The translations under genes and the position numbers were made by a program. DNA of 64,000 nucleotides from Arthonia radiata (taxonomy: Eukaryota > Ascomycota > Arthoniomycetes > Arthoniales > Arthoniaceae): NCBI GenBank assembly GCA_002989075.1, contig PSQN01000014.1, positions 372,001 to 436,000 on the forward strand, read 5' to 3'. Position 1 is the stretch's first letter; every line of letters starts with the position of its first letter. The notes under the pieces are model-generated. The model searched no databases and was not told the origin of the DNA. It worked only from the letters and a program-made list of their open reading frames with translations. Below are positions 2,199 through 10,459 of this stretch, piece by piece.

Positions 2199-4000
2199 TC
2201 AAAAAATTTGACGTGTCAGAAACTCCAGATCCTTCCTAAGAGGCTCAATTACATCAGTATAGAGTCCCTTTCGAACTGTCGGGTCGTCCAGCGTGAAATC
2301 TTGGTGTGTTGTTACCCATGGGGGCTCCAAGCATGACTGGATGGCGTGGTGATAGTTGTCCGAGCATTCCAGCCTCTTGACGATACGCTGGGCCACGACG
2401 ATATCAGTGAAAGCTGTGACTTCTCCGTTGCTGAGGTCGTCGCTAGTGCGATACGCCTTTATCGGCTTTGCTAACTCGATCTCGATCAACAAGATGCCGA
2501 GAGCAAGGAGTCTGCGGTTGCTATGGCAGGCCACGATGTTCAAAGATTGAGTTTTCGGCACTTGGTCGAAGAATGTCGTCAGAAATGGTCTGTGACTGTC
2601 CAGGCCTTCTGCAGTCCGGAAGAAGGAAATGTTTTCCTTGCTCAATCCTTCTCTCAGCCAGGTGTCCTCTTGCAATCCCAACAAGGACAGCGCAACCATG
2701 AAGGCGAGCTTGCATTTGATTTTGGATCCAAGTGTCGACTCTGTGGACGTGAAAAGCTCGTGCAGCGTTATCGAGGAGCTCGGTGTTGATATCAGCAGCT
2801 GACTTGGCCTGGGTTGAAGTTGCCAAGTTTGAGGCAGACCTTGTTGCTCCTCGATCAGTCCCCGCAGCGAAAGCGTGTGGTGCGGTATTCTGTGGGCTGC
2901 ATCACATATTTTGGAAAGGACGGACAATGTATGCTGATCCTTTGACCTTTCAAAGAGAGTACGTGAGCGGGATCTCTGATTATCATCATTGCTAAATGAT
3001 TCACTTACCCGACTTTACGCACCAAAAAGCTTCCCTGACACCAATGCTGAGTTCCTCCGCCAGTGGACGTCTTGATCACAAAGTGAAAGTCGTTCTCGTT
3101 GAGGCTCGCCTTGCCGATGCAGCTCCGAATGGTCTCTAGGGAAAACCTGGCCTCATGCCGACTGGCACAGGTACAGTCCCAACATCTGGAAAGACCTTTG
3201 TACAATATCTTACCGAGCGCCCATACCTGGTCAAGGCGTCCCAACAACATCGTCTGCATGGACGTCTCTTCCTCTGTGTGCTTCGGTCTATTGACGTTGA
3301 GATTGATCAAGCGCTCCAGTTTCTTTGTCGAGCGATGTAAGTTCGTGAGATTCTCCCCACGCTTTTTGGCATTCGTCCAGAATTTCAGCCTGACCGAGAC
3401 GGTTGAGGAAGTGCGCTTGCGATCCTGGTTCTCATAAAGACCCTTCAGCTTTCGATACATCTGGTCTTCGTCCTTTCACAGCCGTCAGCGCGAGCACCGT
3501 ACGTACCACAATCGAGAGCAGGCATCGTTTAAAGAACGGGGCCAAGGGACACAGCATTCAAAAGCATGTGATCTCAAGCTTACCTTCCCTACGGCCGATG
3601 TTTGAGCATTTTCTCCATCAACGATCTGTCCAAGTAGCCTCATGATCTTTTTAATTGCTATTTCAAAGGGCACGTATCCGGCGCCAAAAAGGGACTGAAG
3701 TGCTTTCGCAATTTCATGATCAGGGGTCCAGTCCTGCAGAGAGATCTCCGATTGCAATTTGTCTTTGCGGTCTTTTGAAATTCCTGGTAAGTTCTCAATC
3801 ATGAGACCTATGATCTTGTTAATCAAGACGACCTCCATATAGAAATCTTCATAGAAAGCCTCTAGGTTTCTATCGTAGCGCTTCTCTAAGACCGCGTTTT
3901 TGATCTCGTCAACCCCTCTTGCGTACACTTTCGCAGCTTCGACGATGAACGGCAACGCTGCCAAGACGATTCCAGCGGTCTCAACACCCGTGACAGCCAT
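2199..4000 (-). CDS. DUF7580 protein (HeLo-like N-terminus, pseudokinase-like C-terminus)
   Basis: Three exons (4000-3584, 3472-3009, 2946-2199) close in frame to give 542 residues. The start, MAVTGVETAGIVLAALPFI, is the hydrophobic first helix typical of the fungal 'prion-inhibition and propagation'/HeLo-like N-terminus found in DUF7580 proteins. The C-terminal third (about 360-520) keeps the family pattern of a degenerate kinase-like lobe: a helix ending in LLGLQEDTWL, then a LALGILLIEI helix, then a block with the pattern YHHAIQSCLEPPW. Catalytic kinase residues are not visible, so a pseudokinase-like role is inferred. Known relatives are associated with fungal allorecognition and cell-death loci; the function here is inferred. 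It is divergently arranged with the large NLR at 4395, with 394 bases between start codons, which suggests a shared promoter and a functional pair. I am fairly sure of the family, less of the role. Confidence 0.82.
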
Positions 4001-4394: not shown

Positions 4395-7300
4395 ATGGAA
4401 AGATCAGTCAAATATTTCGCTCGCAAATGCGCAGATTCGTTTTCGAAAGCGGTTAAATTTCGTTCAGATGAAGTGGTGGAGAACGAACTTGGGCGCTTTA
4501 AGATCTGGGTCAGTCCTAGCCAACCTCATAGACCTCACCACTCATTCGCGTGGTCGTAGTCAATGTGCCGAAGGTTTCAACCACGCTCAGAGATCGAGTT
4601 ATGGGTCATGTTCAGGGAAATTCTACTGACCTGCTCGCCAGGCCGGAAACTTGGGCATATTCGCAAGTGGCAACGCTTCCGCGGATCATCGCCTTCGCAA
4701 CGACGAGTCTATCAAAGATGTGATCATCATGCTTTTAACGCGGTTGGACAAACAAGTGAAGGGAGTTTGGCAAATATCGGAGCTTTCTGAAGATGATTCC
4801 CTTGCTCAAACGTCTCCAAAAGATGGTTCCGAAGCTGAACTCTCGAGCGCATCAATATCACCAGCTTCAAGCGACACCTCCGAAGATGAACAATCAAGTC
4901 AGCAAGATGGTCGTAGGAGAAACGGCGGCGCAGGTGCAAACAAAGATATAAGCAATACCATCAGTCAGCTATACAGGCTGTCCGCCTTGGTGAAAAAGTC
5001 ACATTCGCTTCAGGAAAAGAGTAAAGTCGAGGACTTCATCCACAAAGAGAAATTTGCTGACCAGGTCAATGATTTCGGCACGTACGCCAAGTGGAAAGTT
5101 GAAAGGATGTTTCCAAACATGGAGCATTTTCTGCTCGAACGGCTCACAGCTGGTCTAACTTATCGACAGAACAAGCTCTTATACCGAAAGCTCCACCGCG
5201 AAAAGCTGAACTACGGAGTTGAAAACGCTTTCGACGCCCTTCTGACAGATGTTCCTGAGCAACGTATGATGAAGGATGACTCTATTTCCGGGAAGGCTCC
5301 ACGGACAACGAGCAACCCTGCACTTCGAGATCTTCAAAATCCGCAAAAATTTGCGGCACCGTCGACTACCAATGCGTCATCAATTGACCAAGCTCGCGCC
5401 AAATCATATCCAAAGTCGGTTGCACGTTCGCGTTTGGACACATCTGTCATTACCAGTCGCGCCAAATTTGATGTTCCTAGGCCACCTCTGCCATCCGCAA
5501 AGCACGATGAAGTGCGGTGTCCTTACTGCCCGCGCATTTTGACAAAGACAGACTTGATACCATCGAATTGGACGTAAGCTACGCCCACCGAAAATCCTCT
5601 CATGATTGCCCCGTTAACCATCGTTCTCAGGTTCCACATTCTCAAAGACATTGACCCTTACATGTGCATCTTTCCGGATTGCGACGAGTCGACAGAGCAG
5701 TATCGAACACAGGAAGAGTGGGTAGGTCATATGCAACGCGTGCACAACACGGCTTATTTTTGCCCACTAAAAGGGCATGAGACCGAGACGTTTCGCTCCT
5801 TGGAAAAATTTGACGCGCATATGAAAGTCGAGCATCATACAGAGTTCACCGAAGCACAACTTCCCACTATTCAAAAATTGAGTTGTAAGCCCGCCTCTTC
5901 TCTTTTTGGGGGTTTCAGAGGTGGCGAGCTTGAAACAGACCCAAGAGAAAATGTGGTCTGTCCATTCTGCCCATATTCGTACACTGAAGCGACGGCTGGC
6001 GCTAAGATAGGAGCTCCAAGCCGTGCTCCAAGCCTCTCTAACAATATTCAAAGACACATTGCTCGACACCTAGAGGAAGTTGCGTTGCTATCAATTCCCG
6101 AACAAGAAGAGTTTGATGCAACGTCGATCCAGCGAGCATCGGAGACCGTAATTAAGAGCGAGCGATCAGGCGATAATGACCTTCCCGCGGTTACTTGGGG
6201 TACCTGGTCGCATGAAAGTCCCACTCCTGCGGTTGATCTTATAATTCCCCCGACGGATGATCTGGACTGGTCGCAGGTGCGCAATAGCGTCACGAACAAT
6301 GTGGTTGACCACAACCGAATCCTAGAGAAGGATCCCGTGTTGCTTCCATTTGTCAAAGCAGCGATGATCGCTTCGCTGGCGAATGGGCCACACGCGGCTA
6401 CGCACGAGCAGTGGCGTCGCAACATGGATGCTGCTTCACGTGAAGCATTTTACAGGTTGTTGCGCCATCCAAATGGACTGCAAGCAATGATCGAAGGCCA
6501 GCAAAATTTCTTACTCTGTACCGCAAACGACCAAACGGTCAGAGCCATCATGTCTTGCGAAATCATTGAGTATCTGAACTCAATACACTCTCAAGGTAAA
6601 AACACTGCAGTGTGCTATGTTTATCTTGACTCTCGAACCATAGCGGATTACACTGTGGAAGAAATCCTCTCTCATATGCTGAAGCAGCTACTAGAGAAAT
6701 CATCAGGTATGCCATCGGAAATAATTGATCGAATTCGACCACAGGAGTCACTGGCGCTGCACCAAGTATCCGAAAGTCTTAAGGCTGTTGTCCTTAGCAG
6801 TTCTAACACCTTTGTTGTCGTCGACGCCTCCGTGACGTCTGGAGGAGCGCAGGTCTCTACGAGACTAGTCGAAGCGCTCTTAGAACTCCAGGTGGCCGTC
6901 AACGTCTGTCTAATGATTTTGTCAGCCCCAGCTTCCCATGACAAACAACTTTTTGCAGGCAAGCCAACTGTGGCTGTTGATTCCTTAGATCCGACCCTAT
7001 CCACAAGTGTTCAGAACGACGAGTCGGCCAAAGTAGAGTCAGCGAAAGTCATGCCGAAGAAGCAGCTCAGGCACGATCAGTACACTTGCGGATGGATCTG
7101 CGTGCTGTCATTCGAGCTAGAGGTGTGCCGCTTGATGCTTGATGAGGAGCACCATAGCCCTGAAGGGACGGCTTCAGAGTCAATGACGTATAGTTTCGGA
7201 CGTGTGGCGAAGCATAACATTGTTATCGCAAGTGGCTGTGACGGCGCTTATGGCACGGATTCGGCTGCCGTAGTGGCGCAAACGTTGTTGCGTAACTTTC

Positions 7301-10300
7301 CGAACTTTCGTTTCATTGTTTCAGTTGGTATTGGGGGAGGGGTTCCCACGGACATAAATGACGTCCGTTTGGGAGACGTCGTAGTCAGCACCCTGAAATA
7401 TTCCCAAGGTAACTTCAAGCTCTTCGAAAAGACAATGAGTCTATCTCTGACTTGTTTTCAGGTGGCCGTCCGCATCAAGATTCCGGCATACAGGATGCGG
7501 ATGGCTTTCCTAAGATAGTTGGCTCCTTGAACGCACCGCCAACAATATTGATGTCAGCATGTTCGCATCTGCAAGCTATGCAAGAGCTCGAGGAGACCAA
7601 AATGTCCGAATACCTATTCAACTTACCGATACAATTCCGAAAGCCTACTGCTCCAGACAGACTTTTCTATGCGGACTATGGTCACGTGCAGAGAGAAGAC
7701 AACGAGACCTGCGCGCGATGCGACGCACGCAAAGTAGTTCCTCGGGCAGACCGGGAGACTACCGTTCCGGAGGTGCATTACGGTATGATCGCATCAGTCA
7801 ATCGAATTGTGAAAGACGCCGTACTGCGTGACAAGCTTGCGTTGAAGAACGAGATACTTTGTTTTGAGATGCATGCGGCCGGTCTTGCGAATAACATCCC
7901 TTGTATCGCGGCAAGGGGCATTTGCGACTACTGCGATTCCCACAGGACAAATGAATGGCAGCATTACGCCGCCGCCTCGGCAGCTGCTTGGGCTAAAGAA
8001 ATGATGCAAGTGATTCCAGCTGAGACTCAAGAAGGTAAGCACATCACAGATCATCACGTTTCGCAGTGAGCGATGTTAATTCTCAAAATCAGACAGTGAC
8101 GACGGGAGAGCCGTAAAAGATTCTGATGTCACTGAAAAGCAACAAGCGGATGTGCTCCGATGGCTGTCGCCGCCAGACCCACAGATCGAACACGCCAAAG
8201 CTCTTAGCATTCGCTCCGTTCCAGAGCTTTCACCATTCCTCGCAACTGAAGTACTTGAGCATTGGGCAAGTTCGGGATCTTCCTCGTTTTACTGCCTCGA
8301 AGGGGCTCCCGGCTCTGGAAAGACTATTCTGACAGCCTCCATCGTGGAGCACTTGCTAAAGACCGCTGTTCCTAGAGGCGAGGCTGTCGCATTCTATTAC
8401 TTTGCTTACAGCGACATGAATAAAAGATCATACAACAAAATGATACGGTCTTTGACGTATCAACTTTCTACTCAGAAAGAGACAGGCTGGACGGATCTCT
8501 GGCGATTGTATTTGTCGTACCATAAAGAGATTGACTTGTCACTCATCGAGAGTAGCGCAGGGCCCAGTAATAGCGAGATGGAAAGTGTTATGATGCGCAT
8601 ACTTGGATTTTGGGATGAAACATGGCTCGTGATCGACGCTATAGATGAGTGCGAATCTGATCACGAATTTGTCAGCTGGCTTGCACGAGCATTGACGCAA
8701 GAACGACATCGACTGAACATTCTAGTCACAAGCCGCCTCGCAACAGGGATCCAATCTGAGCTGCAGAGTATCGCGAATCCGAAAACGTTCGTATCTTTAC
8801 GGGAGTGTTATCATGCTTGGATCACGAAAGCATATACACGTCATCAACTCTACGAGGGCAAAGAGTTCCAGACATGGGGTGGAAAAGACACACTGGAGCG
8901 TCTAGCAACCAGCGTCGCCGAGAAAGCGAACAGCTCGTAAGTGAACAACAAAGAATCCTATGCAGATGATGAAGTTTGCGATTGGTTGACTTTGGAGCAG
9001 GGTCGGTTTCGCAACGTGCTTACTAGACTTGCTATCCCAATGCCGCAACTTCGAAGACGCGGAGGGAGAGCTTGAAAGTCTTCCGCGGACGCTTGAAGCG
9101 ACATATGGTTTTATATTGCGAAAGATCAGTTCAGAAGCCAGGACTTCCGTAATATTCATGTTGCAGCTCTTGCTATTGTCTCAACGGCCGCTAAGGGTGG
9201 CGGAGGCCATCGAAGCTCTTGATACACATGCCGACAGCAGCCCTGTTTACTCAATCGGGCCCGTTTCGCGGCTAATGAATATCTCAGGTCTCTGTAGAGG
9301 GTTGCTTATAGTAACTCAAAATGAAACAAAAGCGATTGGCATGGACGACGAAGTCAGGTTCGCGCACTCTTCGGTAGAGGACTACTTGCAGTCGGACAGC
9401 ATAGACCCTGAGTTCGCGCAATACTTCTCGAGCGCAAACGTAAAGCAGACCGTAGTCATGGCTTGCCTGATATACTTGATGAAGTTACCACACGCAACCG
9501 ACATTGCTACAATTCGTCACGAGATGCCTTGGGCACAACAAGCGGCAGAAATTTGGTACGCATACGCTGCGGAGGTAGAAAGCGACGATACCGTTGCTAC
9601 ACGAATCTGCCTTTTCGCCACGCAACCGTGTTTTAGCACGTGGCTACAACTCATGGAGTATACTGTTGAGGGTTATCGTCCGTACTCGCCTCTTACAAAC
9701 CTTGCCTACGCGGGACTGTGGAAGTCATGTTACATGTTTATTGAACAAGAACAGGATATGCAGCTCGACCATTTGAACGATGCACTTTACGCTGCGTCTT
9801 CTGGTGGTCATTTGAAGACAGCTCAAGTATTGTTATACAACGGTGCTGATGCCAATGCGCGTAGTGGTATAGCAGAGTTCAGCGCACTCCAGGTTGCGGC
9901 ACACCAAGGTCATACCGAAGTCATCAAGCTGCTGCTCGGGGCAGGTGCTAGGATCGACTTCGGAAGTGCCGAAGGAGGTATGTCAGCGCTTCAAGTGGCC
10001 TCGCGGTACGGCAAACTCGAGGCTGCAAAAATCTTGGTCGAAGCTGGTGCTCATATCGATCAAGAGGACGATGACGGCGAAACTGCGCTTCAATCCGCTA
10101 CACGGGAAGGCCATTTGCAAGTCGTCAAATATCTGATCGAGCACGGCGCAGACGTCAACGCGATATCAGGTAGTGGCGTGGCGCTCGTGGCTGCCGCCTC
10201 AGAGGGCCATCTTGAAGTCGTGCATTGTCTTCTTGATGCGGGGGCCGATATCGAACTCGTATCCCCAGACAGAGTCGAAGGCAACGCCTTGCAAGCCGCT

Positions 10301-10459
10301 TCTGCCGCAGGCCACGAAGACGTAGTGAAGTGTCTTCTGGATCGTGGCGCCAACGTCAACACAAAGCCTGGCTCTTACAGCACCGCGCTTCAAGCAGCTA
10401 CGCGTTTCAGTCACGCAAAGATTGTGCAGATGTTGCGGGATGCCGGCGCTGAAAGCTGA
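4395..10459 (+). CDS. Large NLR-like STAND protein: C2H2 fingers, degenerate NACHT, PNP fold, NACHT, ankyrin repeats
   Basis: Six exons (4395-4508, 4642-5573, 5631-7408, 7462-8034, 8093-8936, 9001-10459) join in frame to give 1,899 residues. The 38-codon first exon ends GRFKIW and splices to AGNLGIFASG, restoring the RFKxWAGNLGA motif that opens many fungal STAND proteins. Zinc-finger pairs (CPYC, CIFPDC...H, CPFC...HIARH) occupy about 328-470. About 630-790 looks like a NACHT fold without a P-loop. Residues about 832-1130 match the PNP/UDP-phosphorylase domain of fungal NLRs (YTCGWICVLSFE, VGIGGGVP, RLGDVVVS). An intact NACHT follows, with Walker A GAPGSGKT near 1201 and Walker B WLVIDAIDECE near 1309. 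Six or more ankyrin repeats span about 1667-1895. Family knowledge points to a cytosolic sensor that oligomerises on ligand binding to the repeats; the ligand is unknown. It pairs divergently with the DUF7580 gene. Confidence 0.88.

What the first reader, a model, noticed from the sequence alone, without database searches (positions are those of the whole stretch)
6480..8940. NLR with two NTPase-like modules: a P-loop-less NACHT-like segment before the PNP fold and an intact NACHT after it
Between the zinc fingers and the PNP domain (about residues 630-790, nt 6480-6960) the sequence keeps the NACHT layout: a block in the P-loop position (NFLLCTANDQT) that has lost GxxGxGKT, a helix EIIEYLNSIHSQ, strand AVCYVYLDSR, helix LSHMLKQLLEKSSG, then a Walker-B-like strand NTFVVVDAS without the acidic DE, and a strand CLMILSAP where LLTSRP would sit. 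A complete NACHT follows the PNP domain with GAPGSGKT and VIDAIDECE. A dead-plus-live NTPase pair within one sensor, split by an enzyme-like fold, is not an architecture I know as standard.
Basis: partly seen in the sequence, partly recalled or inferred. Interest (0 to 1): 0.82.

Follow-up and report, generated by a model that had tools for sequence, protein, structure and literature searches.

The report
Fungal immune receptor with dead switch
A fungal immune-receptor gene carries, in front of its normal ATP-driven switch, a second such switch that keeps the pattern of a folded core but has lost the residues needed to handle ATP, so it may serve as a regulatory or docking part.

Summary
Confirmed. 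A six-exon model (window 4395-10459, +) encodes an open 1,899-residue fungal NLR: zinc-finger-like block, NACHT-like segment, PNP fold, intact NACHT, ankyrin repeats. The segment matches Pfam NPHP3_N above cut-off (36.5 vs 24.8 bits), though not PF05729, and a profile of 25 intact NACHTs of this genome at 31.0 bits (2,000 shuffles: at most 6.2). It lost 6 of 7 near-invariant catalytic columns; each of the 25 loses at most one. It keeps 36 of 41 hydrophobic-core columns (200 shuffles: at most 33). Trees disfavour a duplicate of the live NACHT (AU p 0.017, 0.039). A Met before the PNP, as in 6 of 7 paralogous frames read, suggests fusion of a truncated NLR to a standard PNP-NACHT-ANK NLR. The PNP lost a Glu kept in 10 of 10 paralogues read. 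Rice BPH18/BPH26/Pib carry a similar P-loop-less first NB domain (passages). New fungal variant of a known kind. Its role is inferred; the fold model is poor, and orthologues could not be searched.

The parts
4395..10459 (+). whole gene, six exons 4395-4508, 4642-5573, 5631-7408, 7462-8034, 8093-8936, 9001-10459 (stop TGA 10457-10459); 1,899 aa
   Evidence: joined exons open without a stop, GT..AG introns and stop seen in the sequence; model by eye, no transcript data
4395..5573 (+). N-terminal region; resembles the N-terminus of fungal 'acuF-like' C2H2 proteins (name recalled)
   Evidence: no Pfam match for 4651-5571 at E 0.1
5518..6078 (+). C2H2-like zinc-finger block
   Evidence: Cys and His pairs spaced as in C2H2 fingers, by eye; no zinc-finger Pfam above cut-off; 7 distant matches elsewhere in the genome, 24-32% identity
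6412..6993 (+). degenerate (P-loop-less) NACHT core, about residues 610-803; ends set by eye
   Evidence: Pfam PF24883 over 6487-6831, own profile over about 6436-6957
6505..6546 (+). P-loop position, reads NFLLC-TANDQTVRA; the three conserved Gly and the Lys are replaced
6805..6843 (+). Walker B position, reads NTFVVVDASVTSG; first Asp kept, Asp-Glu replaced by Val-Thr
6907..6930 (+). TSR (sensor) position, reads CLMILSAP; Arg replaced by Ala
7051..7053 (+). Met823, candidate fossil start codon of an ancestral PNP-NACHT-ANK gene (or internal start)
   Evidence: 14 residues before the WIC motif; 6 of 7 paralogous PNP frames printed have a Met 9-15 residues before theirs, L051 has none
7084..8018 (+). 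PNP_UDP-type domain, interrupted by intron 7409-7461
   Evidence: PF01048 22.0 and 19.5 bits on the two exon parts, each under the cut-off of 25.1 for a whole domain; best paralogue 48% identical over 110 residues
7797..7799 (+). Val in GMIASVN where the six aligned PNP paralogues have Gly
7872..7874 (+). His in FEMHAAG where 10 of 10 PNP paralogues read have Glu (FExE); 10 of 19 other PNP loci could be read
8230..8799 (+). intact NACHT: GAPGSGKT 8302-8325, VIDAIDECE 8629-8655, ILVTSR 8719-8736
   Evidence: PF24883 120.5 bits, PF05729 42.8 bits; position of motifs
9773..10456 (+). ankyrin repeats
   Evidence: PF12796 202.5 bits

Best explanation
This is a fungal STAND/NLR receptor made by joining a truncated upstream NLR (zinc fingers plus a NACHT core without its winged-helix part) to a standard PNP-NACHT-ankyrin NLR. 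The second NACHT is the working ATP switch. The first has lost ATP handling but keeps its hydrophobic core and works as a non-catalytic module. Most likely it docks on the PNP or the live NACHT and helps set the resting state or the geometry of the activated assembly. Shown by sequence: the architecture, the selective loss of catalytic motifs, the retained core pattern, and (moderately) ancestry apart from the live copy. Inferred: the fusion, the fold, and the docking role.
For: NACHT identity. Selective loss: 6 of 7 catalytic columns lost against at most 1 in each of 25 intact NACHTs, and 10 of 13 at the looser threshold against at most 3; 36 of 41 core columns kept, 2 of 14 motif columns kept. 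In a tree without 20 motif columns its branch (2.07) is no longer the longest (L017 2.58, L028 2.34). Coding: codon bias fits its own frame only (0.103 against at most -0.065 in the other five); 0 stops against 7-15 in the other five frames. Separate origin: AU p 0.017 and 0.039 against pairing with the live NACHT; the live NACHT groups with L013 and L015, 98/89. Fusion: Met823 where 6 of 7 paralogous PNP frames have a Met; about 30 residues between core and PNP.
Against: No orthologue could be searched, so conservation of the degenerate module across species is untested. The open frame could be kept for the downstream domains alone. Its place in the trees is on a long branch with weak support for its nearest kin (88/84, where the bootstrap had not settled, then 82/53), and the two trees differ in rows and alignment, so the shorter branch in the second is not owed to the removed columns alone. 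The structure model is poor (pLDDT 43.8; TM at most 0.39 in the listed Foldseek rows). PF05729 does not match. Gene model without transcripts. The PNP changes could mean that the whole N-terminal half is drifting.
Confidence: 0.6

Rival explanations
1. Neutral relic: the segment is a leftover of a fusion, without function of its own, kept in frame only because the domains behind it are needed.
For: The catalytic motifs are lost; no winged-helix part follows; best other match in the genome is 26.2 bits; no orthologues tested.
Against: 36 of 41 hydrophobic-core columns kept, above all 200 shuffles; branch length not exceptional in the tree without motif columns. A young relic could still look like this.
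Confidence: 0.25
2. Two genes read as one: a C2H2 plus NACHT-remnant gene followed by a PNP-NACHT-ankyrin gene starting at Met823 (nt 7051), perhaps with alternative transcripts.
For: Met823 lies where 6 of 7 PNP paralogue frames have a Met.
Against: Remnant and PNP start share one uninterrupted exon frame (5631-7408) with coding codon bias in the remnant; no stop lies between them.
Confidence: 0.15
3. Tandem duplication of the live NACHT within the gene, followed by decay of the first copy.
For: Same family; simple mechanism.
Against: AU p 0.017 and 0.039 against a joint clade; the live copy groups with L013 and L015. Both tests involve long branches, so they are not final.
Confidence: 0.05
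4. Not an NTPase relic but an unrelated alpha/beta domain that resembles NACHT by chance.
For: No sequence match in the PDB, but the live NACHT has none of note either; poor structure model; no PF05729 match.
Against: NPHP3_N above cut-off, hhalign 94%, shuffles and other frames far below.
Confidence: 0.03

Closest known systems
Rice CC-NBS-NBS-LRR proteins BPH18, BPH26 and Pib (PMC5041133, passages)
   Same: Two NB domains in one receptor; the first is partial (NB only, most of ARC missing) with a P-loop far from consensus, the second complete.
   Different: NB-ARC and LRR in plants, without an enzyme fold between; here NACHT and ankyrin in a fungus, with a PNP fold between and zinc fingers in front. 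No homology claimed.
Fungal PNP_UDP-NACHT-ankyrin NLRs (PMC4986451, passages)
   Same: The C-terminal half (PNP, live NACHT, ankyrin) has this layout; other PNP and NACHT matches lie side by side in the genome.
   Different: There PNP is the N-terminal domain; here zinc fingers and a degenerate NACHT precede it, and the PNP lost a conserved Glu.
Fungal NLRs with non-canonical P-loops (PMC4986451, passage) or with multiple NB domains in three Sordariales orthogroups (PMC12258605, methods passage)
   Same: P-loop variation and more than one NB domain have been seen in fungi.
   Different: The passages speak of single-residue P-loop variants and of multiple NB domains; they do not describe a degenerate-plus-intact pair split by PNP. 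Supplements were not seen.
Plant NLRs that work without a P-loop, such as ADR1-L2 as helper, or lack one, such as Pb1 (PMC3478704, passages)
   Same: NB domains can act without a working ATP site.
   Different: One NB domain per protein as described there; NB-ARC.
Sir3 AAA+ domain (3te6, row 9 of the Foldseek list; that it is inactive is recalled)
   Same: P-loop NTPase fold used without ATPase activity.
   Different: Chromatin protein, AAA+ rather than NACHT; the match is from a low-confidence model.

Membership tests
NPHP3_N / NACHT NTPase (for segment 6412-6993) | match to a curated family profile above cut-off | tested here: met
   PF24883 36.5 bits, cut-off 24.8; PF05729 not matched
NPHP3_N / NACHT NTPase (for segment 6412-6993) | P-loop GxxGxGK[ST] | tested here: not met
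   TANDQTVRA at that place
NPHP3_N / NACHT NTPase (for segment 6412-6993) | Walker B with acidic DE | tested here: not met
   DASVTS; only the first Asp is kept
NPHP3_N / NACHT NTPase (for segment 6412-6993) | P-loop NTPase fold | tested here: inconclusive
   strand and helix order as in the live copy, but pLDDT 43.8 (live 56.3); first 27 Foldseek rows AAA+, E 3.2e-3 or worse, TM 0.31 at the top
NPHP3_N / NACHT NTPase (for segment 6412-6993) | winged-helix/HETHS part after the core | tested here: not met
   judged by length only: about 30 residues separate the core from the PNP start
fungal PNP-NACHT-ankyrin NLR | PNP_UDP domain, intact NACHT and ankyrin repeats in that order | tested here: met
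   the two PNP exon parts score below the Pfam cut-off singly
fungal PNP-NACHT-ankyrin NLR | PNP with conserved active-site residues | tested here: not met
   Asp of RGICDY kept; Glu of FExE is His, Gly of IASG is Val; the role of the Glu is recalled from MTA/SAH nucleosidases, the solved relatives
tandem-NB NLR of BPH18/Pib kind | partial P-loop-less NB followed by a complete NB in one protein | tested here: met
   here, for the paper; analogy, not homology
tandem-NB NLR of BPH18/Pib kind | NB-ARC type NB domains and LRR | tested here: not met
   NPHP3_N and ankyrin instead

The most novel reading that the evidence does not exclude
The N-terminal half (zinc fingers, NACHT without ATP site, PNP without its conserved Glu) is a stack of pseudoenzymes inside one receptor: a built-in decoy, or an obligate dead ring partner that the single live NACHT uses. 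That would be a pseudo-subunit encoded in cis, which my phrase searches of open-access papers did not turn up for fungal NLRs.
Probability: 0.2. Interest if true: 0.75.

Novelty: new variant of a known kind. Interest (0 to 1): 0.52.

Why it matters
If the degenerate NACHT is kept for a purpose, fungi and grasses arrived separately at receptors that pair a dead with a live NTPase, and the question of what such a dead module does becomes testable in a tractable microbe. It also warns annotators: a match to a NACHT profile does not show a working switch, and gene callers may split or merge such loci.

Tried and rejected
Duplication of the live NACHT: disfavoured. Chance resemblance: rejected. Decay by RIP: no RIP signature in the segment (TpA/ApT 0.70, the same as the live NACHT), although four other NACHT copies in the genome carry 7-13 stops. 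A C2H2-NACHT gene elsewhere in this genome: no frame of the 7 C2H2-type paralogue loci scores above 2.7 bits with the NACHT profile. Relatives elsewhere: the segment itself found none in viral contigs and was not searched in prokaryotic contigs; an alignment led by the live NACHT found none in viral contigs and one in prokaryotic contigs, L093, which reads as a fungal NLR in a bacterial MAG. Sequence relatives in the PDB: none for the segment. My first profile was built from only 6 sequences because I had not reverse-complemented minus-strand loci; it scored 1.2 bits and was replaced. The first exon model was off by a few bases and full of stops, and was replaced. Alignments A3, A5 and A6 were not used further; A6 was misaligned. 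The PNP comparison cuts both ways: the window loses 10 of 58 invariant columns, but paralogue L052 also loses 10 of 58, so only the Glu and Gly changes are telling. In one search the intact NACHTs were themselves used to define the columns, which favours them, and the segment and shuffles were added to that alignment. In one search the codon table was trained on the gene without the segment but with the live NACHT.

Base rate of P-loops: read were the 25 NACHTs (the gene's own live one included), the 2 with a stop shown there (L014, L016), and 21 of the 22 loci, of which 14 by pattern and 7 by eye across introns; all 48 show a GK-type P-loop. L091 is an AAA ATPase and was set aside. The remaining rows (95 rows in all, several per gene; among them L022, L025, L040, the stop-ridden copies and weak fragments) were not read. 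Glu of the PNP: read in 10 of 19 other PNP loci fetched; the rest did not show the motif to my pattern.
Full report
What is there. The window lies in a 33.5-Mb, 16-contig genome with many NACHT and PNP matches; I take it for an ascomycete (inference). On the + strand a six-exon model, 4395-10459, reads 1,899 residues without a stop. It was drawn by eye from splice signals and frame, without transcripts. In order it encodes an N-terminal region with C2H2-like zinc fingers (by Cys/His spacing; no zinc-finger Pfam above cut-off), a NACHT-like segment, a PNP_UDP-type fold, an intact NACHT and ankyrin repeats.

Is the first segment a NACHT? Pfam NPHP3_N matches it at 36.5 bits against a cut-off of 24.8, over profile positions 15-133 of 164; PF05729 does not match. 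A profile from 25 intact NACHTs of this genome (24 paralogues and the gene's own live copy) scores it 31.0 bits; 2,000 shuffles reach 6.2 and 264 other open frames of the window reach 2.9. hhalign against 23 NACHTs gives 94.1%, E 1.2e-7.

What has it lost and kept? Of 7 columns that are at least 95% conserved it lost 6 (three Gly and the Lys of the P-loop, Asp and Glu of Walker B); each of the 25 others loses at most one. Of 13 columns at least 80% conserved it lost 10; the others lose at most 3. Of 41 hydrophobic-core columns it keeps 36; intact copies keep 35-41, and 200 shuffles average 26.5 with a maximum of 33. Of 14 conserved polar or glycine columns it keeps 2; intact copies keep 9-14, shuffles average 3.5 with a maximum of 8. 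In the first tree (33 rows) its branch was the longest (2.57); in a second (29 rows, another alignment, 20 motif columns removed) it is 2.07, behind L017 (2.58) and L028 (2.34) and level with L029. The loss thus looks concentrated in the ATP site, though the two trees differ in more than the removed columns. All 48 other NACHT loci read show a P-loop (7 of them by eye across introns); the other rows were not read.

Is it coding? Codon usage fits only its own frame (0.103 against at most -0.065 in the other five); the live NACHT, which unlike the segment was part of the training set, gives 0.118; there is no RIP signature. Its frame has 0 stops, the other five 7-15. This shows that the protein is kept open, not that the segment itself is under selection.

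Fold. AlphaFold with a two-row alignment gave a poor model (pLDDT 43.8, pTM 0.39) with the strand and helix order of a P-loop NTPase; the live NACHT, treated alike, gave 56.3 and 0.54. Because each sequence was in the other's alignment, the two models are not independent. For the segment the first 27 Foldseek rows are AAA+ proteins (membership recalled from the names), other folds appear from row 28 on, no match is below E 0.001 (best 3.2e-3), and TM is only 0.31 at the top. The live control has 7 chains below 0.001, ORC and Apaf-1, with TM 0.45-0.49.

Where did it come from? The live NACHT groups with L013 and L015 (98/89), both near PNP matches on the same strand. The segment sits with L073 (88/84; bootstrap not settled), or with L026, L030 and L073 (82/53). 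Holding it with the live copy is disfavoured at p 0.017 and 0.039. Upstream of L073 lies a frame with a sub-threshold match to PF17111 (25.8 bits, cut-off 27.2). After the segment about 30 residues lead to the PNP, with Met823 14 residues before its WIC motif; of 7 PNP paralogue frames printed, 6 have a Met 9-15 residues before theirs and L051 has none (that these are starts is not shown). I infer a fusion of a truncated NLR with a standard PNP-NACHT-ankyrin NLR.

The PNP may be impaired as well. All 10 paralogues whose motif I could read (of 19 other PNP loci) have Glu in FExE, where the window has His; the six aligned ones have Gly in IASG, where it has Val. The family's solved relatives are mostly MTA/SAH nucleosidases; that this Glu binds the ribose is recalled. 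PNP_UDP effectors of fungal NLRs have been predicted to be such nucleosidases (PMC4986451, passage) and linked to bacterial ATP nucleosidases (PMC10197012 and PMC12881547, passages). Overall the window loses 10 of 58 invariant columns and L052 also 10 of 58, so this is suggestive only.

How it may work. The live NACHT switches on ATP after the ankyrin part senses something, and brings PNP domains together; this follows the general NLR model (PMC12258605, figure-legend passage). The degenerate NACHT would pack on the PNP or the live NACHT as a fixed, nucleotide-free partner. This role is inference.

Known and new. Rice BPH18, BPH26 and Pib have a partial, P-loop-less first NB and a complete second one; the authors think the first non-functional or diversified (PMC5041133, passages). 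Plant NLRs that work without or lack a P-loop are reviewed in PMC3478704 (passages). Fungal papers report P-loop variants (PMC4986451) and some multi-NB orthogroups (PMC12258605). A search for 'two NACHT domains' found 0 papers. Six phrases such as tandem, double or degenerate NACHT found 9 papers, none on fungal NLRs by title. Six more phrases found 25, of which the 15 listed are plant resistance-gene or NLRP3 papers by title. Wider term searches gave the papers cited. Only open-access papers are held, supplements were not seen, and no paper was read whole, so absence from print is not shown. I file it as a new variant of a known kind.

Limits. No fungal relatives outside this genome could be searched; conservation is the missing test.

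Noticed in passing
window 7797-7799 and 7872-7874: The PNP domain has Val for the Gly of IASG and His for the Glu of FExE, both otherwise invariant among the paralogues read, so the effector fold may be impaired.
   Followed up: partly
window 7051-7053: Met823 sits where 6 of 7 paralogous PNP frames have a Met, a possible fossil or alternative start.
   Followed up: partly
window 3485-4000 (- strand): A divergent frame beside the NLR looks HeLo-like by eye, but Pfam gives no family above cut-off; it could be a partner gene.
   Followed up: partly
L093 (NYXK01000085.1): A contig of a deltaproteobacterial MAG encodes a fungal-type NLR with split frames (PigL_N, then NACHT and ankyrin by eye): likely contamination.
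   Followed up: partly
G000 C9:524661, C1:250138, C1:244572, C7:315831: NACHT copies with 7-13 in-frame stops, mostly TAG and TAA, look like RIP-decayed NLRs.
   Followed up: no
L067 (G000 C9:137902): A C2H2-type paralogue of this gene's zinc-finger block shares a reading frame with ankyrin repeats.
   Followed up: no
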